Source: Methylocystis sp. L43 (GTDB lineage Bacteria > Pseudomonadota > Alphaproteobacteria > Rhizobiales > Beijerinckiaceae). From it: DNA of 64,000 bases. Made by a program: the position numbers and the translations under genes. The notes beneath the pieces were generated by a model, which was given only the letters and a program-made list of their open reading frames with translations, did no database searches and was not told where the DNA came from. Location of the stretch: contig NZ_JADNRA010000034.1 of NCBI RefSeq assembly GCF_015709525.1, forward strand, positions 186,001-250,000. The letters run 5' to 3'. This document shows positions 5,415 through 21,795 of this stretch, piece by piece; within the stretch, counting starts at the first letter, position 1, and each line of letters opens with the position of its first letter.

Positions 5415-5430
5415 CGGCACATATGATGCT
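5415..5430 (+). promoter_or_regulatory. Candidate sigma-54 promoter
   Basis: CGGCACATATGATGCT keeps the essential GG and GC pairs ten bases apart and most of GGCAC and TGCT; it departs from consensus at three positions. It lies 84 bases before the ATG of the MtnC-like gene. A TGT-N11-ACA sequence at 5291-5307 is one base longer than the NifA consensus and is not counted as a site. Confidence 0.45.
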
Positions 5431-5513: not shown

Positions 5514-6200
5514 ATGAGTGAACCGGTGCGCGCCGTCCTGATCGAGCTCGAAGGCGCCGCGGTTCCGACAGCTTTCGTGACCGGGACCCTCACGCCACTC
5601 GCGCAGGCGCGGCTTGGCGCCTTCATCGCGGAACATGCCTCGGACCCCGACGTGGAAGACGCCTTGGAGGAAACGGGGCGCCTCCTTGGCGGATTCGACT
5701 TGACGCTCGAGGAAGCCGAAGCGCTGTTGCTGCGCTGGATGAAGCAGAACCGCAAGGCGACCCCGCTGAAGACGATCCAGGGCCTGATCTGGTGCGAGAG
5801 TTTTGAGGCGGGCGCGATCAAAGGCGAGCTTTATCCCGACGTCGCAGCATCGCTGAGATCATGGGCGGCATCGGGCCGTCGCCTGTTTGTTTACTCGTCC
5901 AATTCGAGATTGGCGCAGCAACTCCTGCTGAGCCACAGCGCCTCGGGCGACCTCACAAGCCTGTTCGAGGAGTTCTTCGACACATCCATCGGTCAGAAAG
6001 TCGAACCCGCCTCCTACCGCGCGATCTGTAAGCGTCTCGATTTGCCTTCAGGATCGGTGCTCGCACTGTCGGGCGATGGGGACGAATTGGACGCCGCCCA
6101 GTCTGCAGGCCTTGCGACGACGCTCATCGCGCGAGAGGGCCTTGCGGAGAGTCGCCATGCGGTTTGCCCTGATTTTGCATCGCTGAATTTGGGATCGTGA
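5514..6200 (+). CDS. MtnC-like HAD protein (enolase-phosphatase E1 family) with altered catalytic residues
   Basis: A 228-residue protein aligned end to end with acireductone synthase MtnC of methionine salvage: LKTIQGLIWCESFEAG, VYSSNSRLAQQLLLSH, FEEFFDTSIGQKVEPASY and ELDAAQSAGL are family blocks. The nucleophile motif, normally D-x-E-G-T, reads ELEGA, so the phosphorylated aspartate is glutamate. In motif IV, normally SDxxxELDAA, the sequence is SGDGDELDAA, so that aspartate is glycine. Normal phosphatase chemistry is therefore unlikely. The frame is intact, which argues for a kept non-catalytic or altered role. It shares a strand and a 63-base gap with the ferredoxin gene downstream and has a candidate sigma-54 promoter. 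Confidence 0.85.
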   Translation: MSEPVRAVLIELEGAAVPTAFVTGTLTPLAQARLGAFIAEHASDPDVEDALEETGRLLGGFDLTLEEAEALLLRWMKQNRKATPLKTIQGLIWCESFEAGAIKGELYPDVAASLRSWAASGRRLFVYSSNSRLAQQLLLSHSASGDLTSLFEEFFDTSIGQKVEPASYRAICKRLDLPSGSVLALSGDGDELDAAQSAGLATTLIAREGLAESRHAVCPDFASLNLGS

Positions 6201-6263
6201 CGCGCTCCGCGCTCCCTCCGAAAAGGAAAAATATCGCTGACGACTTCGGGCGGATGGAGAAAG

Positions 6264-6593
6264 ATGGCCACGTTCACTCTTGAAACCAGAGACGGCGCCA
6301 GACAGGAAATCACCGGCAAGAATGGCGTCTCGCTGATGAAATTGATCCGGCGCGCCGGCGTCGAAGAGCTGGTCGCGCAATGCGGCGGCAGTTGCGCCTG
6401 CGCGACCTGCCACGTCTATCTCACCCTGCCCCAGGGGATTGAAATGGCCGTCTCTGGACCCGGAGAAAACCGGATGCTTGCGACAGCCAGCCATCGCAAA
6501 TTCAATTCGCGTCTCGCCTGTCAAATCAGGTTCGATGACACGTTTGACGGAATGGCGATCCGCATCGCCCCGGAGGATGCGACGAGCTTTTGA
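6264..6593 (+). CDS. 2Fe-2S ferredoxin
   Basis: A 109-residue adrenodoxin/FdVI-type ferredoxin. Cluster ligands are visible as C-x5-C-x2-C in QCGGSCACATCHVY and a fourth cysteine in RLACQIRF, the normal spacing for this class. MLATASHR precedes the last ligand, as in relatives. It would act as a small soluble electron carrier. The gene is 63 bases downstream of the MtnC-like gene and probably co-transcribed. With nifA nearby, a role in electron supply to nitrogenase or cofactor assembly is plausible but inferred. Confidence 0.92.
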   Translation: MATFTLETRDGARQEITGKNGVSLMKLIRRAGVEELVAQCGGSCACATCHVYLTLPQGIEMAVSGPGENRMLATASHRKFNSRLACQIRFDDTFDGMAIRIAPEDATSF

Positions 6594-6645
6594 TTCGCCC
6601 ACGCGGTTTCGAACGTGCAGCGAACGTTCCCGCGGAAAGGCTATA

Positions 6646-6661
6646 TGGTCTGGAACTTGCT
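6646..6661 (+). promoter_or_regulatory. Candidate sigma-54 promoter
   Basis: TGGTCTGGAACTTGCT has the GG and GC pairs at the correct distance and a perfect TTGCT -12 element; three bases of the -24 block differ from TGGCACG. It lies 43 bases before the ATG at 6704. Confidence 0.5.
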
Positions 6662-6703
6662 CAACGGCCATGCACGCAGCGCCAAGATGCAGGGTGAGCA
6701 TCC

Positions 6704-6958
6704 ATGCCGATGAAGGAAGAAAGCGTTCTGCCCGGGAAGTGCTATCGAACGAAGGGCGGCGAAATCAACTCGGAAAAATACACGGTGATCAGCATCACCC
6801 GTGGGATCGTCACTTATCAAAGCTGGACGTCCGACCCCAATCGCCTGTCTCTGCGCACGAACACCGGCCTGAAGGCCTTCGCCGAAGTGCTGTTCAAGGA
6901 AATCCCCTGCCCGAACAGAGATCCAGGCCAAAAGATCGAATATTTCGATCCCTCGTAG
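6704..6958 (+). CDS. Small conserved-looking protein of unknown function
   Basis: An 84-residue soluble protein starting MPMKEESVLPGKCYRT. It has predicted beta-rich segments (KYTVISITRGIVTYQSW) and two cysteines, one in GKCYRT and one in EIPCPN. No family is recognised. It is preceded by a candidate -24/-12 promoter and follows the ferredoxin gene, with the convergent cupin-like gene just beyond. A second in-frame ATG two codons in could be the true start. Confidence 0.65.
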   Translation: MPMKEESVLPGKCYRTKGGEINSEKYTVISITRGIVTYQSWTSDPNRLSLRTNTGLKAFAEVLFKEIPCPNRDPGQKIEYFDPS

Positions 6959-6989
6959 GGATACATTCTCTCCTACGAGCTCAGTCTCC

Positions 6990-7718
6990 TTAATCCCGGA
7001 TCTCGTTTTGAATTGAAAAAATATCGTAGGGAGGATCATTGTCCGAATTGGCGTAGCCCAATGGCGGCGCGTCGACGCTTCCGCCTGATGCGCCCGATCG
7101 GCGACTGATCGCGCCGATGTCGCCGCCATAAACATGGATGATGATGGAGGTGCGATCATCCAGCGCGTTGCGAAGCTCCAAGACCTCGCCGCTCGCGGAC
7201 GAGCGGGCCTCCACCATGTTCGCTTGCAATAGACGGGACACGCCGGCCTGCGCGCTGTTCGTCGGAGAACCATCGAGTTGCTGGCGGTTGATTGCGCCGT
7301 GCAACACCCCCGCGATCTCCCAAACCGAAGGCTGGGAGATTGTCATGCAGGCCCCGCCCGACAAAATGGTGCTCACGACGGAAAAGCGGTCCAGCACGTC
7401 GTGGTAAATCTGGAATTGCTGGCCTCCGGCGGGATTTGGGACGGCGAAGACCGTTGGCAGCCAATCGTCCGTCGTGAAGAGCCGGGCCATGAGATCGCGG
7501 CCGATCAGCAAAATCTCCCGCTCGCTTTCGGCGAGTTCGACCATGGACTGAATGTCCCAGATGAATCGCCGCAGCGGGGGAGGAACAGGGTCTCGCCCGA
7601 CGACTCGTAAATTTGGATCAACCGCATTTTTCTCGATCATGATGTCGAACGGTCCGCCAGGATTTGAGGGAATGCGCGCGCTCGAGCAAAGCGCTTCGCT
7701 GAGGCCACGCCGAGACAC
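6990..7718 (-). CDS. Cysteine-dioxygenase-like cupin without its metal ligands
   Basis: A 242-residue protein resembling the COG5553 double-stranded beta-helix family: DDWLP, QIYHDVLDRFSVVS, VWEIAGVLHG and IIIHVYGGDIGAISRR match family blocks in order. Active members bind iron with an HxH pair before the VWG block and a third histidine before NAxDDR. Here the first site reads ISQPSVWE and the second GEVLELRNALDDR, so all three ligands appear to be missing. Oxygenase activity is therefore unlikely. It is the last gene of a minus-strand unit after the aminotransferase-like gene. A shorter start at ATG 7640 is possible because the first 26 residues look non-conserved. Confidence 0.75.
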   Translation of the reverse strand: MSRRGLSEALCSSARIPSNPGGPFDIMIEKNAVDPNLRVVGRDPVPPPLRRFIWDIQSMVELAESEREILLIGRDLMARLFTTDDWLPTVFAVPNPAGGQQFQIYHDVLDRFSVVSTILSGGACMTISQPSVWEIAGVLHGAINRQQLDGSPTNSAQAGVSRLLQANMVEARSSASGEVLELRNALDDRTSIIIHVYGGDIGAISRRSGASGGSVDAPPLGYANSDNDPPYDIFSIQNEIRD

Positions 7719-7787
7719 GCCGACTGTGTTCTCGCGGATTTAGCGGCGTGTGCGCCTCAGTGAGGCGGAGGCAAACGACTCGCGCGC

Positions 7788-8891
7788 TCATCGTTCCTCC
7801 TGCGCGCAAATCATATCGATGCAGGATATCGCCGCATCGATGTCGCTTTCCTCGACTGAGAGCGGAGGAAACAAACCCAGGACCGACCCCATCGCGCGCG
7901 TGAGGAGCCCGCGCGCGGCCAGCTTCGCGCGCATGGGCTCCGCGTCTCCCGCGAGCGTTAGCGCCTGCATCAGCCCAAGGCCATCCAGCGCCGTAAAAGC
8001 TGCACGACGCCGATAAAACAACGCGGACAGCTGGTCTTCGAGATACCAGCTTCGGTTCTGCACGCGTTCCTGAAAGCCAGGCGTCGACAGAGCGTCGACA
8101 AGCGCGTGCCCGGCCAGAAGCGCGGCTCCGTCAGCGAGCGTCGAGCCGCCGAGCGCCCCTCGCGCCAGTCTTTGCGTGACGACGAGCGCGGCCAGCGGCG
8201 GGGCGTCTGCAGGCGCATAACGGGCGACCATCAGGTCCGGGGTGACGCCGCTCCATTCGTGCGCCCAAAGCATGCCTGAGCGGCCGAAGCCGCAAAAGGT
8301 TTCGTCGAAACCGAGAATGAGCCCATATTCGTCTGCGGTCTCGCGCAGTCTGGCGAGGACGCTTCCTGAGACGACTTCAAAACCGGCTTGCGTCCTAACC
8401 GGCGCGATCAGAATGCCCGCGGTCCTCACGTCGACTTCCGCCTGCAATGCGGCGTGATCGTCGGTTCGGAGAACGACGATCTCGTCGTCGCCCTCAAGGC
8501 CAGGCGGAAGGCTGGCCGTTGCATCAGCAGGCCCGACGCAGACAATGAACCGTCGGCGCTTGGGCCGACCGACGAGGCGATGGTAGCGCCGAACCATTTC
8601 GACGGCGACACGCCAGGCGTCGGACTCGGAGGGAAGCAAATACACGCGATCGCCAAAAGAAACGGGCGAAATCATCGCGCATAAAGCATCTGAAAGCGCC
8701 GCGGCTTCCGCCACTGATTGCGGCGAACCTATTGGCGCATCCGTGCGGAGCGTTGATCCTGAAAAATTTTCCGGAAAGAAGAGCGATGCGCCGGAAAAGT
8801 CGAGCGGCGCGCCCGCGACGAATGTGTCGCCGACGGCCGGTTGGATGGGCTCGTTAGGCTCGCGCGACGAATCTGAGAATGTGGCTGACAT
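7788..8891 (-). CDS. Class III aminotransferase-like protein lacking the PLP lysine
   Basis: A 367-residue fold-type I, class III aminotransferase relative (ornithine or glutamate-1-semialdehyde aminotransferase group). The PLP-aspartate block is clear in LILGFDETFCGFGRSG, followed by SGVTPDLM. The Schiff-base lysine, normally in PDxxxxxKxLGGG, is replaced: the sequence is PDLMVARYAPADAPP with tyrosine at the aligned position and no lysine nearby. The cofactor-phosphate region is also weakly conserved and the N-terminus is short. Transamination is therefore unlikely. It lies between the AHSA1-type gene (57-base gap) and the cupin-like gene (69-base gap) in one probable operon. Confidence 0.85.
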   Translation of the reverse strand: MSATFSDSSREPNEPIQPAVGDTFVAGAPLDFSGASLFFPENFSGSTLRTDAPIGSPQSVAEAAALSDALCAMISPVSFGDRVYLLPSESDAWRVAVEMVRRYHRLVGRPKRRRFIVCVGPADATASLPPGLEGDDEIVVLRTDDHAALQAEVDVRTAGILIAPVRTQAGFEVVSGSVLARLRETADEYGLILGFDETFCGFGRSGMLWAHEWSGVTPDLMVARYAPADAPPLAALVVTQRLARGALGGSTLADGAALLAGHALVDALSTPGFQERVQNRSWYLEDQLSALFYRRRAAFTALDGLGLMQALTLAGDAEPMRAKLAARGLLTRAMGSVLGLFPPLSVEESDIDAAISCIDMICAQEER

Positions 8892-8948: not shown

Positions 8949-9419
8949 TCAGGCGCCGTGTTCGATGAGGTCAGGAAGTCTTTTGGCAAGAGAGTTCAAC
9001 ACGCTCTGCGAGCCTTTGAGCATGACGTCGTAGACCGCGTCGGCCGTGGGGGCCGCGTCGATTCCGTCCTGGACAAAGACGAAATGCGTGCCGCCATCCG
9101 GCAGCTGCGAGATCGTCCACGTAACTGTCGTGTCAATGTATCGGCCAAAACCCTTCAGCTCGTCATCACCGCCCGACCAGCTGAAACGCAACATACGGCC
9201 GGGCTCCACGGCGAGAACCTGGCACTTGAACTCGCCGTCCCAACGCTCGATGGGGCGGCTCCAGATCGTGAATTTGTGGCCGACAACCGGCTCAACGTCA
9301 TTTGGAAAGAACCAAACGGCGAGCCATTCGGAATCTGTCATCGCGCGCCAAATGGCCTCGATCGGATGTTCGAGGTCCTTCTCCGTCGTGAGGCTGCGTG
9401 TCTGTGTAGCGTCAAGCAC
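8949..9419 (-). CDS. SRPBCC/AHSA1-family protein
   Basis: A 156-residue START-like ligand-binding fold of the AHSA1 group: HPIEAIWRAMTDSEWLAVWFFPND, FTIWSRPIERWDGEFKCQVLAVEPGRMLRFSW and the C-terminal helix are recognisable. Such proteins bind hydrophobic ligands or act as co-chaperones; the ligand here is unknown. The start is GTG at 9419, preceded by GGGAGCAGG. It is the first gene of a minus-strand unit with the aminotransferase-like and cupin-like genes and has a good sigma-54 promoter 29 bases upstream. Confidence 0.85.
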   Translation of the reverse strand: MLDATQTRSLTTEKDLEHPIEAIWRAMTDSEWLAVWFFPNDVEPVVGHKFTIWSRPIERWDGEFKCQVLAVEPGRMLRFSWSGGDDELKGFGRYIDTTVTWTISQLPDGGTHFVFVQDGIDAAPTADAVYDVMLKGSQSVLNSLAKRLPDLIEHGA

Positions 9420-9447: not shown

Positions 9448-9463
9448 TGCAAGGCTCAAGCCA
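9448..9463 (-). promoter_or_regulatory. Sigma-54 promoter for the AHSA1-aminotransferase-cupin unit
   Basis: Read on the minus strand this is TGGCTTGAGCCTTGCA, matching TGGCACG-N4-TTGCA at all but two positions, with GG and GC correctly spaced. It gives a transcription start about 18 bases before the GTG at 9419. A similar 19-base segment (16 identical) occurs at 9564-9582, but there the -24 GG is missing. No TGT-N10-ACA site was seen upstream. Confidence 0.65.
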
Positions 9464-9650
9464 GGCGCATAAGCGGCGCGGAGTTCGACATCATGCGATT
9501 GTATCAATTCTAAGCGCGATACCGCGGCTCGGCTCCATGCGCAGCGCGCCCCCTTTGGCTCCGAACATGCATGGCTCACGGCTCAGCTCTCGCGAACGCT
9601 CTTGTACAAAAAAAGCGAAGCGCGGGTCGGGTCACGCATGAGCGCTCCGT

Positions 9651-10121
9651 ATGACGGACAAAGAGGAATGGGTCGTCTGGAACGGCTCGATGGGAATACT
9701 GGATATGGCGACGATCGGCGATATCCAGCATGACGAGAGCGGCAGGACGGCGTCTCTGGCGCCGCCCTATGGCGTCGTGGGGCCTTTCAGTCTTGACGAA
9801 CTTGAAACGCTGGGGCGGATCGCCTTTGGCGAATGTCTCGTTATGTCGCGCCAGCGATGGCAAGAGGATCAGCTCGATCTGCGTCTCGAGGCGCGAGAAA
9901 AGCGCCGGACGCTATTGTTTCGGATGGATATCGACGATGACCATGAACATCGCGAAATTTTAGGGCTGCCGTTGGAGGGCCGGCTCAATCTGTCGGAGAT
10001 TAGCGGCGCCTTTCGGCAGTTGGCCAAGACCGCGCATCCCGACGCCGGCGGCAGCGACGAAGATTACCGTCGTATTGTCGAGGCGCGCGACGCGCTGCTC
10101 AAGCAACTCACGACGGGTTGA
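9651..10121 (+). CDS. J-domain protein with an unknown N-terminal domain
   Basis: A 156-residue protein whose last 60 residues form a DnaJ domain: EILGLPLEGRLNLSEISGAFRQLAKTAHPDAGGSDEDYRRIVEARDALL contains the HPD loop that stimulates Hsp70 ATPase. The first 95 residues (MTDKEEWVVWNGS onward) match nothing I know. It would recruit DnaK to particular clients. It is divergent from the AHSA1-type gene, an arrangement that pairs two possible co-chaperones; that link is inference. Confidence 0.85.
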   Translation: MTDKEEWVVWNGSMGILDMATIGDIQHDESGRTASLAPPYGVVGPFSLDELETLGRIAFGECLVMSRQRWQEDQLDLRLEAREKRRTLLFRMDIDDDHEHREILGLPLEGRLNLSEISGAFRQLAKTAHPDAGGSDEDYRRIVEARDALLKQLTTG

Positions 10122-12880: not shown

Positions 12881-13690
12881 CTACTCCGCCGCATGAATCT
12901 TGTTTGTGGAGGCTTGTCCGGCGCGATCGAGGTCGCGCGAGACGATGCGAAGCAACTCGCCGGCGAGATTAGAGACAAGTTCCAAATAGGACGTCGCTTG
13001 GCGCGCAAGATGATTGTAGATGAGCACCGCCGGGATGGCGGCGAAGAGGCCGATCGCCGTCGCGAGCAGCGCTTCGGCGATGCCGGGCGCGACGACGGCC
13101 AGATTGGTCGTCTGCGCTTTGGAAATGCCGATAAAGCTGTTCATGATGCCCCAGACGGTGCCGAACAGTCCGATGAAGGGGCCTGTCGATCCGACGGAAG
13201 CAAGCAGTCCGGTGCCCCGCTTGATCGAAAGCGCTTCAGCGCGCTCGATTTCGGCGAAGCACGCCGCAATGCGCTCCTTCACGCCCGGCGCCGCAAGAAT
13301 ATCGGACGACAGCTTCATTTCCCGCGTCGCCTCGCCAAGCAGCGCCTGCGTCAAACGGTCGCCGCCGCCAAGCGCTAGCCGCGCCTCGGAGAGGCCGCGC
13401 GCCTCAGAGAGGCGGCGTATCGCCGTCGTCACGCGCTCGCGCGACCGTTTCAGCTCGATCGTTTTGGCGATGAGGATCGTCCATGTCGCGACGGACGCCA
13501 ATAACAAGCCAATCATCACGATCTTCACGACGATGTCGGCGTTGACGAACATCGTCCACACAGAAAGATCATGAGGCTTAGTGGCCGCAATCGCTGCGTC
13601 GAGCGCTGGCGACCCTGGTGCGGCTGCGACGCTCTGCGCAGCGAGAAGCGCGATGATTGAGATCACGAGAAACTGCAAAGAACGTTTCAT
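12881..13690 (-). CDS. exbB: ExbB motor protein with signal peptide
   Basis: A 269-residue ExbB/TolQ family protein. An N-terminal signal-like segment is followed by three membrane helices; [28 protein letters not shown] and [21 protein letters not shown] are the family core. The longer N-terminus with a cleavable signal is typical of the ExbB variant of TonB systems in alphaproteobacteria. Its ATG overlaps the stop of the hydroxylase gene by four bases. Confidence 0.95.
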
Positions 13691-14370
13691 GCTTCAGCCC
13701 ATGTTCGGATCAGATTGTGATAAACGCCCGACATTTTGACGCAGGCAGGATCGCCGGCGCCCAGCCGAGTCGTCAGGGATTGGATGGCCTGGTCGAGATC
13801 GAAGAGCAAAGCGCGCGCCACATTGTCTCGAATCATGCTCTGCATCCAAAAAAACGAGGCGATGCGCTCACCACGCGTGACGCCTTTGACAAGATGAAGA
13901 CTCGTTGAAGGATACAAAACGAGATCGCCTGCGGGAAGTTTCACTTCCTGCTGTCCGACCCGATCCTCGATCACAAGCTCGCCGCCGTCATACTCGTCCG
14001 CTTCTGAGAGGAACAGCGTGCAAGAAAGATCCGTGCGAATGCGAATCGGCGTCCCGGGAATGCCGCGGATCGCATTGTCGACGTGCAATCCAAAGTCGTG
14101 CCCAACGCCATAGCGATTGAACAGCGGCGGAAAAATCTTATGCGGCAGCGCCGCTGAGACGAAGGTCGACGACTGCGCAAGCGCCTCAAGCACATGTTCG
14201 CCAAGTTCGCGCGCGACGTCGCCGGCTTGCGGCAGTTGAAGATTGTTCTTCACCAGAGAGGACTGTGAACCGGCGGTCGCGCGACCGTCCTCCCACGCCG
14301 CCCTGTCCATGGCCGCGCGAAAGAAGGCAACCTGCTGCTTGGAAAGAACTTCGGGTATGCAAATAAGCAT
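13687..14370 (-). CDS. PiuC/YbiX-type Fe(II)/2-oxoglutarate hydroxylase (second of two)
   Basis: A 227-residue PKHD-type hydroxylase starting [14 protein letters not shown]. Iron ligands are visible as HxD in [10 protein letters not shown] and a later histidine in [12 protein letters not shown], with the 2-oxoglutarate arginine close by in the ERIASFFW segment. PiuC proteins commonly accompany TonB siderophore receptors, and their substrate is not settled. It lies five bases after a homologous gene of equal length, so the two are tandem duplicates within the operon. Start ATG 14370 removes an unconserved extension. Confidence 0.9.
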
Positions 14371-14375
14371 CAGCG

Positions 14376-15059
14376 CTATGCTTCCCCCCAGTAGCGGATG
14401 AGATTGTGGTAGACGGTCACCAGCTTGCGCAGATCGGGATCGTCCGCGCCCACGCGCGGCGCGAGCTCCTGTATCGATTCGTCGAGATCGCAAACGAGGC
14501 TGCGCGCCTCGTCGGCGCGGATCATGCTTTGCAGCCACAAAAATGAGGCGAGACGTAGGCCGCTAGTGACGGGCGTCACCATATGCAGACTGCCGGCCGA
14601 ATAAAGAATGAGATCGCCCGCCGGGGGCTTGAATTGCCTTGATCCGTAGATGTCCTCGACGATCAGTTCGCCGCCCTCATATTCGTCGGGATCTGAAAGA
14701 AGCACGGTTGCGGCGAGGTCAACGCGGATACGCGCGCCGGTCATGGCGTCGCCGCGTATCGCATTGTCGACATGCGGATCGAAGTGGTCGCCGACGCCAT
14801 AACGGTTGAACAACGGCGGGTAAATGCGCAGCGGAACAGCGGTCGAAACGAAAGCGGCATTGGCGAGGAGCGACGAGAGCAGCCGCTTGCCGAGCGCCCG
14901 CGAGATTTCAGAGTTCGGCGGAAGTTGCTCATTGCGCTTCGCCTCGCCGGCGTTCACCCCGGCGGTGGAGGCGCCGTCCTCCCATGCCGCCTGCGCCATC
15001 GCCTCGCGAAGTACGTTGACCTCCTTCCGATCGAGCGCGCCTTGTATGTGAGCAAGCAT
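14376..15059 (-). CDS. PiuC/YbiX-type Fe(II)/2-oxoglutarate hydroxylase (first of two)
   Basis: A 227-residue paralogue of the next gene, starting [15 protein letters not shown]. Ligands appear in [11 protein letters not shown] (HxD) and [12 protein letters not shown] (His). Both copies keep the catalytic residues, so both may be active. It lies 13 bases after the TonB receptor gene. Two PiuC genes in one receptor operon are unusual; a single copy is the rule. Confidence 0.9.
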
Positions 15060-15072
15060 TCGCGGCGCTCCC

Positions 15073-17592
15073 TTAGAACAAGATACTGGTTTCGAGATAG
15101 ACCGAGCGGCCGGGCGACATCTGCGCGAAGGGCGTCGCCGTCTGATAGAAGGCGTCATAGATCGTGCGGTCGAAGAGATTGTTGACCGAGAACTTCATCG
15201 TGATGTTTTGGCCAATCTTCGCCTCAGCAAAAACATCGAACCGCCAGTACGAAGGCAGGATCGTCGGAACGTTCAAAAAAGGATTGGCGGCGGTCGGCGC
15301 CGGCAGTCCATATCTGTTGAACGCTGTGCCGCCATTGGCGACAATATTGTTGCCGCCATAGATCCTGGAACGGTAGATGGCCTGGCCACCGAATTCGAGC
15401 GCATTCGGAGCGAGGCCGATCAGGTCGCCGAATTTGTACTTGGACAGCAGGCTGAAGGACTCATGCGCGATATTGGCGAGTTGAAGTCCGATATTCGTTC
15501 GCGCGTAGGAGCTGGTCACCCGCGAGTCCATCAGCACGATGCCGCCAAGGACCATCCACTTGTCGGTGATATTGCCCGCAACCTCAAGATCGACGCCCTG
15601 GACGTAATAGGACGCGTCGCCGGTGGTGACGCCGGAGTTCACTTCTCTCGCGCCGCTCACATCCGTCTTGAAGAAGGCGGCTGTCGCGAGCAGATGCCTG
15701 TCGAACAGCTCCCATTTCAGACCGACCTCCGCCGCCTTGTTGAGTTGGGGAGCAAAGATTTGCGACGCCGTGTTCAGGCCGCCGTAATTCGCCGCGCCGC
15801 CGTCAAGCTCGGCTCCGACGGGCGTCGCCGAGGTGGCGTAGGCGGCGTAGGCGCTGACGTTCGGCAGCGGCTTGAAGACGACTCCGGCGTTCCAATTGAA
15901 CAGACCCGAATGGCTCTTGGCGAATGTCGAAAGGGTCTCAGTGCGGCTTGTGATGTTGTAATCGTCAAAGCGCGCGCCGCCGTTCACGATCACGACGTCC
16001 TGATAGTTCGCAGTTTCGATCAGATAGCCTGATTTCGTGTCGACAGCGATCCGCGTCGGATTGGTGTTGCGGTATGGCGTGTTGAGAAACGGCAGATAGG
16101 TGCACGGAAGATAGAGGTTACAGGTCACCGTATTGCCGGTGGGTATCCCATTCAACTCGGAAGCGAGGCCCTGATAATTGGTGCGCGTTACGCCTTCGCG
16201 GGCGAATTCCACGCCGGCGACGAGCGCATGCTTGACGGGGCCGGTTTCGACTTTAAGCGTCGCCTCGGTCTGGTTGTCGAGCGTGTTCACCACCTGGTAG
16301 CGGCTTTGCGCGCCAATTCTCACAGTCGAAGCGAATAGATCCGCGCTCCCCGTCAGCGATCCGATATAGTCCAGAACAGAGCGGCTCTGTCGGAACCGAT
16401 TGTCGAATACGAGGTTGTCGTTGTAGCGATAGTGGGCGGTGAAGGTGCCGAAATTCTGCATCGCAACTTGGAAATCGCGATCGAGGAAGCCATACCAGTT
16501 GGAGCGCGGCGTAACGCCTTCGGGAAACGGCCTATTCCAGATCCGGTTATACGGCACGCCGAAGTCCGGCAGGCCATTCTGATAGACATGCGTGTATTGA
16601 GCGGTCAGCGTCAGGTCCTCGAGCGGCTTGAACACCACTGAGCCGGCGACGCCGTCGCGATAGTCGGTGACAAAGCTGCGGCCGGCGACATTCGAGTCGT
16701 GATAAAGAGCATTGACGCGCACCGCGAGGATCGGGCTGATCACTTTGTTGACGTCAGCTGTCACCCGCTTCATGTGGTCGGAAAAGCCGCCAATCGCTTT
16801 GAGTTCGACGAAATCGCGATCGGTCGCTTGTTTCGTTACGATGTTGATCGCGCCGCCCGCAGTGCCACGACCGGCGAAAGTCGATCCCGGCCCGCGCAGA
16901 ATTTCGACCTGTTCGGTATAGAAGTTCTCGCGAATGCTGACGCCAGGATCGCGCACGCCGTCGACGAAGATGTCGTTGCGAACGTCGAAGCCGCGAATGA
17001 AGAAGCGATCGCCGAACGCGTTGCCGCCTTCGCCCGTCCCTAGCGTCACGCCTGCCGTGCTGCGACCGATTTCACGCAGCGTGAAGGCGTTCTTGTCGTC
17101 GAGCACTTCCTTGGTCAGCACCGTGATCGTGCGCGGCGTATTGAGCACCGGCTCGGTGAATTTCGGCGAAGACAGGCGGTCGACCTTATAGGGCGCAACC
17201 GGATCGGCGTAAGGATTGGCGTTGGGCGCCGTCGCGAAGATCGGAAGGCCTCCGCTGCCTGCGCCTTGGCCGCCGGCGTTTGAAGCGCCCGGCGCGCCGC
17301 GCCGCTGCCCCGCGGCCTGAGTGGCTGCCGCATGACGCGCCGGTTGCGGCTGAGCGGCGGCGATGGGCTTGGGTTTCGCCGGCGCCGCCGCGCGCGGCTT
17401 CTCCTGCGGCGCGTCGACTTTAACCGGCGGCAGCGTCGTCGAAGCGGATTGCGCCAGAGCCGAAGCGCTGACACTCGAGGCAAGCGCCGCAGCAACGCTC
17501 AGCGCCTTCATCGACGTCAGATCTCCTGCACGAGTCCGCGGCAGCGACTGAGTCAACATTCGTAGAGAAATTGGAGTTTTTACGTCGCTCAT
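15073..17592 (-). CDS. TonB-dependent siderophore receptor
   Basis: An 839-residue outer-membrane receptor. A signal peptide (MKALSVAAALASSVSASALAQS) is followed by a long proline/alanine-rich linker, a plug domain with TVLTKEVLDDKNAFTLREI and VEILRGPGSTFAGRGTAGGAINIVTK, and a beta-barrel ending in ETSILF with a terminal aromatic residue. It belongs to the siderophore-receptor group. The true start may be the ATG at 17559 or 17511; the longest frame is given. It heads an operon with two PiuC genes and exbB-exbD-tonB, so import and energising are encoded together, presumably under iron control. Confidence 0.92.
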   Translation of the reverse strand: MSDVKTPISLRMLTQSLPRTRAGDLTSMKALSVAAALASSVSASALAQSASTTLPPVKVDAPQEKPRAAAPAKPKPIAAAQPQPARHAAATQAAGQRRGAPGASNAGGQGAGSGGLPIFATAPNANPYADPVAPYKVDRLSSPKFTEPVLNTPRTITVLTKEVLDDKNAFTLREIGRSTAGVTLGTGEGGNAFGDRFFIRGFDVRNDIFVDGVRDPGVSIRENFYTEQVEILRGPGSTFAGRGTAGGAINIVTKQATDRDFVELKAIGGFSDHMKRVTADVNKVISPILAVRVNALYHDSNVAGRSFVTDYRDGVAGSVVFKPLEDLTLTAQYTHVYQNGLPDFGVPYNRIWNRPFPEGVTPRSNWYGFLDRDFQVAMQNFGTFTAHYRYNDNLVFDNRFRQSRSVLDYIGSLTGSADLFASTVRIGAQSRYQVVNTLDNQTEATLKVETGPVKHALVAGVEFAREGVTRTNYQGLASELNGIPTGNTVTCNLYLPCTYLPFLNTPYRNTNPTRIAVDTKSGYLIETANYQDVVIVNGGARFDDYNITSRTETLSTFAKSHSGLFNWNAGVVFKPLPNVSAYAAYATSATPVGAELDGGAANYGGLNTASQIFAPQLNKAAEVGLKWELFDRHLLATAAFFKTDVSGAREVNSGVTTGDASYYVQGVDLEVAGNITDKWMVLGGIVLMDSRVTSSYARTNIGLQLANIAHESFSLLSKYKFGDLIGLAPNALEFGGQAIYRSRIYGGNNIVANGGTAFNRYGLPAPTAANPFLNVPTILPSYWRFDVFAEAKIGQNITMKFSVNNLFDRTIYDAFYQTATPFAQMSPGRSVYLETSILF

Positions 17593-18544: not shown

Positions 18545-18970
18545 ATGGAGCCCGCCATTCCGCCGATCGAGGACGGCGCCGAACGCGACAAGTTGGAGAT
18601 CGCAATCGACGATTGCGTGCGTCGCTTCTACGCCAAGGGCGCCGAAGATCCGCTGTTGGGCCCTATCTTTATGGCGATTGACGGTCTCGACCAGCATATG
18701 GGGATCGTCGCGAATTTCTGGTCCAGGACCTTGCTCGGCACGGAGCGCTATCAGGGCCAGCCCTTCGCCGCGCACATCAATTTACCGATTGAGCCGCAGC
18801 ATTTTACGCGCTGGCTCGAACTCTTTAGCGAAAGCGCCAATGAAGCGCTGCCTAAGACGCAGGCCGAGCAGGCGATCGCCAAAGCCGCCCACATGACGCA
18901 ATGTTTCCAGTCTGGGCTGTTCCCCTTCGTCGGCGCCGATGGAAAGCCGTCGCGCGTTCCAGCGCCATAG
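18545..18970 (+). CDS. Group III truncated hemoglobin
   Basis: A 141-residue TrHb3-family globin: VRRFYAKGAEDPLLGPIF, NFWSRTLLGTERYQGQPFAAH and FTRWLELFSESANEAL are family blocks, and the proximal histidine is most likely that in FAAHINLPIE. Such proteins bind oxygen or nitric oxide. Placement in a sigma-54-driven unit between nifA genes suggests oxygen or NO handling during nitrogen fixation; that is inference. Start ATG 18545 gives MEPAIPPIEDG. Confidence 0.88.
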   Translation: MEPAIPPIEDGAERDKLEIAIDDCVRRFYAKGAEDPLLGPIFMAIDGLDQHMGIVANFWSRTLLGTERYQGQPFAAHINLPIEPQHFTRWLELFSESANEALPKTQAEQAIAKAAHMTQCFQSGLFPFVGADGKPSRVPAP

Positions 18971-19991: not shown

Positions 19992-20007
19992 TGGCACGAT
20001 GCTTGCG
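19992..20007 (+). promoter_or_regulatory. Sigma-54 promoter for second nifA
   Basis: TGGCACGATGCTTGCG matches TGGCACG-N4-TTGC at every fixed position. It lies 46 bases before the ATG at 20053 and covers the earlier in-frame ATG at 19999, which cannot therefore be the start of transcripts from this promoter. Confidence 0.8.
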
Positions 20008-20052
20008 TCAAAACCATTGAAAACACCCACGCATGTCGTGAGGCTAAAAAGT

Positions 20053-21795
20053 ATGGGTTTGCAGCTGGCAGGCGGCGCGTGCGCGCCGAAGGCGCGCGAA
20101 TTCGATGTGAGAGACACTGCTCTCGTCGGCATCTACGAAATATCGAAGCTCCTGGCGTCGCCAAACCGTCTGGAAACCACGCTTGCGGGCGTGCTGGCGC
20201 TGCTTTCGAGCTTTCTTGATATGCGCCATGGCTTGGTCGCGCTGCTCGACGCGGCGGGCGGGCCCGAGGTTGTGGTTGGGTCAGGCTGGAGCGAAGATTC
20301 CGCCAAGCGTTTCTTCGACCGACTACCCGAACGCGCCGTGGGGCAGATCGTCGCGACGAAAATGCCGCTCGTCGTCGAGAACGTCGCAGCTTCACCGCTC
20401 TTCCAAGGCTCCGACTTTTCCGAATGGGGACCGACCGACGGCCGGCCGTTCTCGCTGATCGGCGTCCCGATCAAGGAGGGCGATGCCGTCGTCGGCACGC
20501 TGACGGTGGATCGCGTCTACGACGATCGTTCAGTGACGCTGTTCGACCATGACGTGCGCTTCCTGACGATGATCGCCAATCTCGTCGGGCAAACCCTTCG
20601 ACTGCACAAGCTCATCGCACGCGACCGCGAACGTTTGATGCAGGAAAAGGCCTGGCTCGAAAAAGGCGACCGCCTTCCGCAGATCGAAACAAAGAACAGC
20701 GGCATCAATGGCGTTGTCGGCAGCAGCCCAGCGCTGCGCGCGGTGATCGATAAGATTCGCGTCGTCGCCAAGGCCAAGTCCACCGTCCTTCTGCGCGGCG
20801 AATCGGGCACCGGCAAGGAGCTGTTCGCCGCGGCGATACACAATCTCTCGCCGCGACGCTCGAAACCCTTCATCAAGCTGAATTGCGCGGCTCTCCCCGA
20901 GAGCGTGCTGGAATCGGAGCTCTTCGGCCATGAGCGCGGCGCTTTCACCGGCGCAGTGAACATGCGCAAGGGCCGTTTCGAACTGGCCGACGGCGGCACA
21001 TTGTTTCTGGACGAGATCGGCGAAATCACGCCGGCGTTTCAGGCAAAGCTGCTGCGCGTTTTGCAGGAAGGCGAATTCGAACGGGTGGGCGGCACGCGCA
21101 CGCAGAAGGTCGACGTTCGACTCGTGTGCGCGACAAACAAAAATCTCGAAGAGGCGGTCAAGCGCAACGAATTTCGCGCCGATTTGTACTACCGCATCAG
21201 CGTCGTGCCCATTTTCGTGCCGCCGCTGCGCGACCGGAAGGGCGATCTCGAACCGCTCGCCAATGAATTTCTGCGTCGCTTCAATGCGGAGCAAGGCGGA
21301 CGGCTGAGCTTTTCAGAGTCGGCTCTGCACGTGCTCACCGCCTGCGCCTTTCCGGGCAACATCCGAGAGCTGGAAAACTGCGTGTTTCGGACAGCGACTT
21401 TGGCGCAAGGGAATGTCATCACCGACAAGGACTTCTCCTGTCGCAACGACGGCTGTCTCTCTTCGGTGCTTTGGAGCGGCTCGTTGGAGCGTTCGGCGCC
21501 TCCTCCACCCATCGCAAGCTTGCCAACCCTGGCGCCGCCGCGCGAGCGTCAGCCTGCGGCGCCGCCGCCGACGCCGAATGAGCGCCCGCACGCCGACCCA
21601 TCGCCCGAGACCTGTCCCGGCGCCGAAAATTGCACCGCCGTGGAGCGTGACGGCCCTTCCGATCGCGAACGTTTGGTGGACGCCATGGAGCGCGCGGGTT
21701 GGGTCAAGGCGAAGGCGGCCCGACTGCTGGGACTAACCCCGCGTCAGATCGGCTACGCGCTGCAAAAACATGGCGTCGAAGTAAAGAAGTTCTGA
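20053..21795 (+). CDS. nifA: NifA, nif-specific sigma-54 activator (second copy, complete)
   Basis: A 580-residue NifA: GAF domain (about residues 25-180, GIYEISKLL and SSFLDMRHGL), AAA+ domain (about 220-455) with [14 protein letters not shown] and DEIGEI, a proline-rich linker and a C-terminal Fis-type HTH ending KAAR-LLGLTPRQIGYALQK. The cysteines around the end of the AAA+ domain fit C-x11-C-x19-C-x4-C (CAFPGNIRELENC, then CRNDGC), the signature of directly oxygen-sensitive alphaproteobacterial NifA. The ATG at 20053 is chosen because the perfect -24/-12 promoter overlaps the longer start; TGAGG precedes it. Its own sigma-54 promoter implies dependence on another enhancer-binding protein or on NifA itself. 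Confidence 0.95.
   Translation: MGLQLAGGACAPKAREFDVRDTALVGIYEISKLLASPNRLETTLAGVLALLSSFLDMRHGLVALLDAAGGPEVVVGSGWSEDSAKRFFDRLPERAVGQIVATKMPLVVENVAASPLFQGSDFSEWGPTDGRPFSLIGVPIKEGDAVVGTLTVDRVYDDRSVTLFDHDVRFLTMIANLVGQTLRLHKLIARDRERLMQEKAWLEKGDRLPQIETKNSGINGVVGSSPALRAVIDKIRVVAKAKSTVLLRGESGTGKELFAAAIHNLSPRRSKPFIKLNCAALPESVLESELFGHERGAFTGAVNMRKGRFELADGGTLFLDEIGEITPAFQAKLLRVLQEGEFERVGGTRTQKVDVRLVCATNKNLEEAVKRNEFRADLYYRISVVPIFVPPLRDRKGDLEPLANEFLRRFNAEQGGRLSFSESALHVLTACAFPGNIRELENCVFRTATLAQGNVITDKDFSCRNDGCLSSVLWSGSLERSAPPPPIASLPTLAPPRERQPAAPPPTPNERPHADPSPETCPGAENCTAVERDGPSDRERLVDAMERAGWVKAKAARLLGLTPRQIGYALQKHGVEVKKF

What the first reader, a model, noticed from the sequence alone, without database searches (positions are those of the whole stretch)
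5514..8891. Cluster of three intact genes for enzymes that have all lost catalytic residues, in a nif-linked region
Within 3.4 kb lie an MtnC-like phosphatase (nucleophile Asp to Glu, motif IV Asp to Gly), a cysteine-dioxygenase-like cupin (all three metal ligands replaced) and a class III aminotransferase (PLP lysine to Tyr). All frames are open over their full length, so they are not simply decaying. Two convergent units carry them, each with a sigma-54-type promoter, and an intact 2Fe-2S ferredoxin is among them. Three dead enzymes together suggests they were recruited as a structural or regulatory complex, perhaps for nitrogenase or redox control. Their active relatives all touch sulfur amino acid or amino-group chemistry, but a former pathway is only a guess.
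Basis: partly seen in the sequence, partly recalled or inferred. Interest (0 to 1): 0.82.

Follow-up and report, generated by a model that had tools for sequence, protein, structure and literature searches.

The report
Sigma-54-controlled dead enzymes in methanotrophs
Three genes that look like a phosphatase, a thiol dioxygenase and an aminotransferase but lack key catalytic residues are kept under selection in two genera of methane-eating bacteria, each transcription unit behind the same kind of nitrogen-type (sigma-54) promoter even where the genes lie far apart, so they may share a non-catalytic job that we found no description of.

Summary
In the nif/suf/nifA island of a Methylocystis, the MtnC-like HAD protein has lost its nucleophile and motif-IV Asp, the thiol-dioxygenase-like cupin all three metal ligands, and the class III aminotransferase (AT) its PLP lysine.

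Wider comparison: AT (20 of 20 sequences) and cupin (27 of 27) look inactive everywhere. The HAD keeps its nucleophile in 8 of 8 Methylosinus and one Methylocystis, and has Glu in 9 of 9 of the M. rosea group. Median dN/dS is 0.19-0.38. The gene order is kept only in the M. rosea group. In Methylosinus the three units are unlinked, yet co-occur, and each has its own sigma-54-type promoter (two mismatches or fewer: AT 9/9, cupin 16/18, HAD 14/17; random windows 1.5%; other genes 6/239). One more distant relative lacks HAD, ferredoxin and cupin at this locus and has a frameshifted AT, while the neighbours remain.

Best reading: a sigma-54-controlled set of co-opted pseudoenzymes with a [2Fe-2S] ferredoxin, probably serving nitrogen or redox physiology; biochemical role unknown.

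The parts
5415..5430 (+). sigma-54-type -24/-12 promoter (CGGCACATATGATGCT) of the HAD-ferredoxin unit
   Evidence: 2 mismatches to TGGCACN5TTGCW; same site at -94 to -108 in 14 of 17 orthologous loci of both genera at <=2 mismatches, 16 of 17 at <=3
5514..6200 (+). MtnC (acireductone synthase)-like HAD protein; nucleophile Asp to Glu, motif IV Asp to Gly
6264..6593 (+). putidaredoxin/adrenodoxin-type [2Fe-2S] ferredoxin, next to the HAD in 17 of 17 loci
6646..6661 (+). weaker sigma-54-like site (TGGTCTGGAACTTGCT, 3 mismatches) before the 84-aa ORF
   Evidence: 3 mismatches in 10 of 10 loci, but 7% of random windows reach that; only 1 of 10 fits the looser published-type motif
6704..6958 (+). 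84-aa protein of unknown family, near-invariant in the M. rosea group (dN/dS about 0)
   Evidence: also 1.1 kb after HAD-ferredoxin in G154; model unusable
6990..7643 (-). pseudo-thiol-dioxygenase (3-mercaptopropionate/cysteine dioxygenase-like cupin), all three metal ligands replaced; first-stage start was 7718
7788..8891 (-). pseudo-aminotransferase, class III; PLP lysine replaced by Tyr (His in 18 of 20 sequences)
8949..9419 (-). AHSA1-like (START-fold) protein leading the minus-strand unit AHSA1-AT-cupin
   Evidence: PF08327 58 bits; same order in 8 complete loci
9448..9463 (-). sigma-54-type promoter (TGGCTTGAGCCTTGCA) of the AHSA1-AT-cupin unit
   Evidence: conserved in 10 of 10 loci L105-L114, 43-44 bp before the gene
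9556..9571 (+). sigma-54-like site (TGGCTCCGAACATGCA) before the J-domain gene
   Evidence: 2 mismatches in 6 of 14 loci, 3 in the other 8; 13 of 14 fit YGGC-N7-WTGC
9651..10121 (+). protein with a C-terminal J-domain-like stretch, beside the cupin also in four other Methylocystis
   Evidence: PF00226 20.5 bits, below cut-off; neighbours in L081, L150, L151, L154

Best explanation
A conserved, sigma-54-controlled accessory set of Methylocystis and Methylosinus. SHOWN from sequence: a class III aminotransferase without its PLP lysine, a thiol-dioxygenase cupin without metal ligands, and an MtnC-like HAD protein losing its catalytic Asp residues stepwise (motif IV first, the nucleophile later, in the M. 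rosea group only) are kept under purifying selection, tend to occur together, and each heads, or lies in, a unit with a sigma-54-type promoter; an adrenodoxin-type ferredoxin always accompanies the HAD. In the M. rosea group these units, scattered in Methylosinus, stand side by side next to nifA. INFERRED: they are made when RNA polymerase-sigma-54 is switched on by an unidentified enhancer-binding protein (probably nitrogen limitation or a related redox cue) and work as non-catalytic partners: the HAD protein as dedicated partner of the ferredoxin, the aminotransferase and cupin as ligand-binding or scaffolding proteins, in support of nitrogen or redox metabolism. A physical complex is possible but not shown.
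For: Residue losses: AT 20 of 20 sequences without Lys against Lys in 24 of 24 ordinary paralogues; cupin 27 of 27 without any of three ligand His against all three in 3 of 4 other-family members; HAD motif IV Asp lost in 18 of 18, nucleophile Glu in 9 of 9 of the M. rosea group. Selection. Promoters: AT 9/9, cupin 16/18, HAD 14/17, AHSA1 10/10 at <=2 mismatches within 150 bp, against 0/17 (ferredoxin, internal), 0/9 (methyltransferase), 0/10 (DUF255), 1.5% of 20,000 random windows and 6 of 239 other genes in the same loci over 210 bp. In 13 of the 14 unlinked cupin loci and all 3 AT loci tested with a site of <=1 mismatch, the site lies at the gene. Co-occurrence AT-HAD in 39 good genomes: 17 both, 2 AT only, 1 HAD only, 19 neither. 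G180 keeps AHSA1, the 84-aa gene, methyltransferase and J-domain gene but lacks HAD, ferredoxin and cupin there and has a frameshifted AT.
Against: No enhancer site was identified: NifA TGT-N10-ACA 2 of 75, NtrC-like GCAC-N7-GTGC 0 of 75. HAD and AT promoters do not fit the published M. sporium motif YGGCR-N6-TTGC exactly (0 of 17, 0 of 9; cupin 14 of 18). Co-occurrence is not corrected for phylogeny and rests on few independent groups; within Methylosinus alone p = 0.11. G089 has AT and cupin without HAD, G154 HAD and cupin without AT, and several Methylocystis the cupin alone, so the set is not obligate. The ordinary neighbours methyltransferase and J-domain gene have dN/dS as high (0.33, 0.22). 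One cupin pair reached 1.17. G170 has both ferredoxin and cupin split in two frames (a metagenome assembly).
Confidence: 0.45

Rival explanations
1. Co-regulated but functionally separate pseudoenzymes. Each was co-opted on its own for a task under sigma-54 control; they were brought together next to nifA in one group because the island is a convenient place for such genes.
For: Unlinked in Methylosinus, partial sets in G089, G154 and the cupin-only species; the cupin has other partners elsewhere (a divergent gene in 13 loci, the J-domain gene in four others).
Against: Strong co-occurrence of AT and HAD, joint absence in G180 with intact neighbours and gathering into one cluster suggest a shared task.
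Confidence: 0.3
2. Retuned catalysts, not dead ones: the HAD protein with Asp nucleophile and Glu in motif IV (Methylosinus) may still bind Mg and turn over a new substrate, and the others may use another chemistry.
For: Nucleophile Asp, motif II Ser and motif III Lys kept in 8 of 8 Methylosinus HADs; cupin keeps the Tyr, and mostly the His, of the Ser-His-Tyr motif; AT keeps the PLP-ring Asp.
Against: AT has no Lys at the PLP position in 20 of 20, cupin no ligand His in 27 of 27, HAD of the M. rosea group has neither catalytic Asp.
Confidence: 0.15
3. NifA-regulated nitrogenase accessory complex.
For: Position beside nifA, suf and nifB in the M. rosea group; sigma-54 promoters; 4 of the 5 genomes with all three genes in the nifD survey have nifD, and the fifth (G042) has nifA and nifB at a contig end.
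Against: NifA elements at 2 of 75 of these promoters, whereas nifH and nifB here have a pair each; 21 of 26 nifD-bearing genomes lack AT and HAD; in Methylosinus AT and HAD are not near nif.
Confidence: 0.07
4. Relics on the way out.
For: Absent from many Methylocystis; frameshifts in G180 (AT) and G170 (ferredoxin, cupin).
Against: dN/dS well below one, open frames across two genera, conserved promoters.
Confidence: 0.03

Closest known systems
Acireductone synthase MtnC / enolase-phosphatase E1 (TIGR01691; human 1yns, yeast UTR4 2g80)
   Same: Whole-length similarity, above the NCBIfam cut-off; motif II Ser and motif III Lys kept
   Different: Motif IV Asp lost in 18 of 18, nucleophile Glu in the M. 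rosea group; partnered with a ferredoxin, not with methionine-salvage genes. NCBI's model would still name it acireductone synthase
3-mercaptopropionate / cysteine dioxygenase type I (4qma, 3uss/4tlf, 4wvz, 6xb9)
   Same: Similar over about 180 residues; His and Tyr of the Ser-His-Tyr motif mostly kept
   Different: None of the three iron ligands in 27 of 27 sequences
Class III aminotransferases, nearest acetylornithine transaminase ArgD (PRK01278, TIGR00707)
   Same: PF00202 match from residue 147 on; PLP-ring Asp kept
   Different: No PLP lysine; phosphate-cup SGAEA is (S/T)E-x-(D/E)A; the ordinary N-terminal part is replaced by a Ser/Pro-rich stretch; far below every NCBIfam cut-off shown
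Putidaredoxin/adrenodoxin-type ferredoxins (3lxf, putidaredoxin, ferredoxin VI 1e9m)
   Same: Sequence and four-Cys pattern
   Different: Gene partner is the HAD protein; no P450 gene was looked for
Pseudoenzymes as a general kind (review PMC10211241, search listing only)
   Same: Loss of catalytic residues with retained selection
   Different: Three unrelated families under one promoter type in one bacterial group; no such case turned up in our searches

Membership tests
Acireductone synthase (MtnC) | NCBIfam TIGR01691 score over cut-off | tested here: met
   181.3 bits against 128.1
Acireductone synthase (MtnC) | Nucleophile Asp in motif I (role recalled) | tested here: not met
   Glu in 9 of 9 of the M. 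rosea group; Asp in 8 Methylosinus and G154
Acireductone synthase (MtnC) | Motif IV Asp (role recalled) | tested here: not met
   Glu or Gly in 18 of 18; Asp in both ordinary relatives
Thiol dioxygenase (CDO/3MDO) | Sequence similarity to solved members | tested here: met
   4qma E 1.2e-28; but no Pfam CDO family matched at E<=1
Thiol dioxygenase (CDO/3MDO) | Three iron-binding His (positions recalled) | tested here: not met
   0 of 27 have any; 3 of 4 other-family members have all
Thiol dioxygenase (CDO/3MDO) | Ser-His-Tyr motif | tested here: inconclusive
   window has Ile-His-Tyr; His replaced by Gln in L082, L083, L087, L155; Tyr by Phe in L087, Cys in L105
Class III aminotransferase | PF00202 | tested here: met
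   118.1 bits against 30.5
Class III aminotransferase | PLP-binding lysine | tested here: not met
   His 18, Tyr 2 of 20; Lys in 24 of 24 paralogues
Class III aminotransferase | PLP-ring Asp | tested here: met
   Asp in 20 of 20
Sigma-54 (RpoN) regulon | GG-N10-GC element with -24/-12 consensus at a fixed place, conserved | tested here: met
   transcription start not tested
NifA regulon | Upstream TGT-N10-ACA within 260 bp of the -24 element | tested here: not met
   2 of 75 promoters; nifH and nifB here have pairs
nif gene cluster component | Conserved adjacency to nif genes | tested here: not met
   M. rosea group only; Methylosinus and G089 not adjacent
Multiprotein complex | Physical association of the products | not testable with these tools
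   single-chain models of the aminotransferase and the 84-aa protein failed

The most novel reading that the evidence does not exclude
A sigma-54-dependent, wholly non-catalytic sensor or scaffold built from three unrelated former metabolic enzymes and fed by its own ferredoxin, used by type II methanotrophs to fit nitrogen assimilation or fixation to an oxygen-rich cytoplasm; M. rosea-group species show the scattered regulon being assembled into one cluster beside nifA while the HAD part loses its last catalytic residue.
Probability: 0.2. Interest if true: 0.85.

Novelty: new variant of a known kind. Interest (0 to 1): 0.6.

Why it matters
Single pseudoenzymes are well known. Here three unrelated families, scattered over the genome in one genus and clustered in its sister, share a promoter type and largely a distribution. 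If they work together, this is a natural case for asking how dead enzymes are recruited as a group and how a scattered regulon becomes a cluster. It also warns that the methanotroph 'acireductone synthase', 'class III aminotransferase' and thiol-dioxygenase annotations should not be read as metabolic capacity, and gives named, culturable strains (Methylosinus sp. C49, M. rosea SV97) in which to test it.

Tried and rejected
NifA as the activator: the TGT-N10-ACA element is nearly absent. NtrC-, FNR- and IHF-type elements: 0 of 75 each. A shared palindrome or 7-mer upstream: none common to HAD, AT and cupin units; AATTGCG appears before 3 of 8 Methylosinus AT and 5 of 8 Methylosinus cupin promoters and was not followed further. 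The idea that the second NifA-type regulator (19999-21792) goes with the set: it is found in nearly all genomes searched (41 of 44 have a match to this regulator or its paralogue). Structure models: the 84-aa protein pLDDT 50, aminotransferase pLDDT 33, not used. The strict statement in my notebook that all genomes with the three genes have nifD was wrong: G042 has no nifD hit; its contig ends just after nifB. No species tree was built, so 'M. rosea group' means the ten Methylocystis genomes with AT at 84-100% identity.
Full report
WHERE. The window is bases 186001-250000 of contig C33 of a 4.06-Mb genome. Names come from contigs of equal length and place in a named collection: the genus is Methylocystis (for instance G160 = M. 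rosea SV97, G162 = M. silviterrae, G186 = M. suflitae), and the second genus Methylosinus (G128 = sp. Ce-a6, G153 = sp. Sm6; G078 = sp. C49). Left of the focal genes lie nifH, nifD, nifK, nifE, nifB, sufBCD and a nifA that overlaps the window start.

OBSERVATION. Two units converge. Plus strand: HAD protein, [2Fe-2S] ferredoxin, 84-aa ORF. Minus strand: AHSA1-like gene, aminotransferase (AT), cupin. The stated substitutions are all present. The genome has no other MtnC-like match (1 match at E<=0.001).

CONSERVATION OF THE LOSSES. I aligned all 18 HAD and all 20 AT orthologues found in 49 Methylocystis and Methylosinus genomes, and 26 of the 28 cupin orthologues (identity 48% or more) plus one from another genus, G123; G149 and G179 cupins were not aligned. 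PLP lysine: absent in 20 of 20 (His 18, Tyr 2), present in 24 of 24 ordinary paralogues from related genomes. Cupin ligands: 0 of 27 have a His at any of the three places, while three of four more distant family members have all three (the fourth, from G100, has also lost them). HAD: motif IV Asp lost in 18 of 18 (Glu in Methylosinus, Gly in Methylocystis); nucleophile Asp in all 8 Methylosinus and in G154, Glu in all 9 of the M. rosea group. So two families are inactive-looking throughout and the third shows a stepwise loss. Roles of the residues are recalled knowledge, except the Ser-His-Tyr motif, named in the abstract of PMC10966181 (search listing).

SELECTION. Nei-Gojobori dN/dS within the M. 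rosea group (nine genomes; G170 dropped for ferredoxin and cupin because its frames are split): medians HAD 0.19, ferredoxin 0.21, 84-aa ORF 0, cupin 0.38 (one pair 1.17), AT 0.34; neighbours AHSA1 0.09, DUF255 0.14, J-domain 0.22, methyltransferase 0.33. In Methylosinus: HAD 0.29, ferredoxin 0.13, AT 0.30, cupin 0.25.

GENE ORDER. In eight complete loci of the M. rosea group the order from nifA to the J-domain gene is the same as here (L105-L110, L112, L113; L111 is cut by a contig end). In the eight Methylosinus genomes with all three, the units lie on different contigs or at least 0.49 Mb apart; the cupin is loosely on the same contig as nifA (28-115 kb from nifA or nifD where both could be placed), and the AT of Methylosinus sp. 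C49 is alone on plasmid pMSC49a. HAD and ferredoxin are neighbours in 17 of 17 loci. In four other Methylocystis (G135, G154, G177, G181) the cupin sits beside suf and the J-domain gene. G168 has the same nif-suf-nifA island without the block between the short ORF at 2002 and the J-domain gene.

DISTRIBUTION. In 149 genomes of 43 genera of the family, HAD orthologues of 60% identity or more are in 5 and AT orthologues in 6, all in these two genera. In the 49 genomes of the two genera: AT 20, HAD 18, cupin 28, all three 17. In the 39 good-quality genomes AT and HAD are both present in 17, AT alone in 2 (G089, G180), HAD alone in 1 (G154), neither in 19; Fisher p = 5.5e-8 without correction for relatedness; within Methylocystis p = 3.5e-5; within Methylosinus 8 of 9 have all three and G105 none, p = 0.11. 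G182 lacks HAD and cupin only because its contig ends inside AT. In G180 HAD, ferredoxin and cupin are absent from the locus (HAD and cupin also from the genome), AT is frameshifted, and the 84-aa gene between them, AHSA1, methyltransferase and J-domain gene remain. This may be joint loss, or HAD-ferredoxin and cupin may never have been there.

PROMOTERS. Within 150 bp upstream, sites with GG-N10-GC and two or fewer mismatches to TGGCACN5TTGCW occur in 14 of 17 HAD loci, 9 of 9 AT genes that head their own unit (eight Methylosinus, G089), 16 of 18 cupin genes that head their own unit (the two misses are in the suf-linked Methylocystis group), and 10 of 10 AHSA1 genes, which lead the AT-cupin unit in the M. 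rosea group. Internal or control genes: ferredoxin 0 of 17, methyltransferase 0 of 9, DUF255 0 of 10; random windows 1.5%. Among 239 other genes in the same loci 6 had one, over a longer stretch of 210 bp. The HAD element is the same in both genera though the flanks differ. A motif reported from M. sporium 5 start sites, YGGCR-N6-TTGC (PMC12403871, passages and one section read), fits 14 of 18 cupin promoters but none of the HAD or AT ones exactly; a looser YGGC-N7-WTGC fits HAD 15/17, AT 9/9, cupin 16/18, AHSA1 10/10, J-domain 13/14, the 84-aa ORF 1/10, against 3.8% of random windows. The 84-aa ORF's site is therefore weak.

ACTIVATOR. nifH and nifB in this genome have a sigma-54 site and a pair of NifA elements, as reported for Methylosinus sp. 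3S-1 (PMC12727197, abstract and passages). The focal promoters have such an element in 2 of 75 cases and an NtrC-like one in none. The activator is unknown.

MECHANISM. I commit to a sigma-54-switched accessory set of pseudoenzymes with a ferredoxin. Shown: residue losses, selection, promoters, co-occurrence. Inferred: that they act together, that the HAD is the ferredoxin's partner, that AT and cupin bind ligands or scaffold, and that the setting is nitrogen or redox metabolism.

NOVELTY. Pseudoenzymes are a known kind; this combination is, as far as our library searches show, not described. Interest 0.6: surprising and testable, with function open.

Noticed in passing
window 19999-21792: A second NifA (TIGR01817, 727 bits), the counterpart (75-80%) of the single NifA of most Methylocystis/Methylosinus; the nifA at the window start is a second type (55%) found also in G168, G169, G178, G180 and the M. 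rosea group.
   Followed up: partly
L169 (G168) 15182-17149: Island with suf, nifA and the J-domain gene but without the block DUF255...AHSA1: an arrangement lacking the whole module.
   Followed up: partly
L083 10698-11036 and 12 other loci: A gene of unknown family (KDYIPELSEVRMVRRAP...) divergently paired with the cupin in Methylosinus, several Methylocystis and G123, absent from the M. rosea-group loci searched.
   Followed up: partly
L069 (G100): A more distant thiol-dioxygenase relative that has also lost its ligand residues, perhaps an independent case.
   Followed up: no
window 13687-15158: Two tandem, similar genes that look like PKHD-type (PiuC-like) Fe(II)/2-oxoglutarate oxygenases beside a TonB-type receptor and ExbBD-like genes (names recalled from sequence, not scanned).
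   Followed up: no
window 18012 and 19992: Further sigma-54-like sites (1 mismatch) near a receiver-domain protein, a bacterial globin (18545-18967) and the second NifA.
   Followed up: no
window 5514-6200: NCBIfam would name this protein acireductone synthase over its cut-off although both catalytic Asp are gone: a likely misannotation.
   Followed up: yes
L108 (G170): Ferredoxin and cupin each split in two frames in a metagenome assembly; error or decay could not be told.
   Followed up: no
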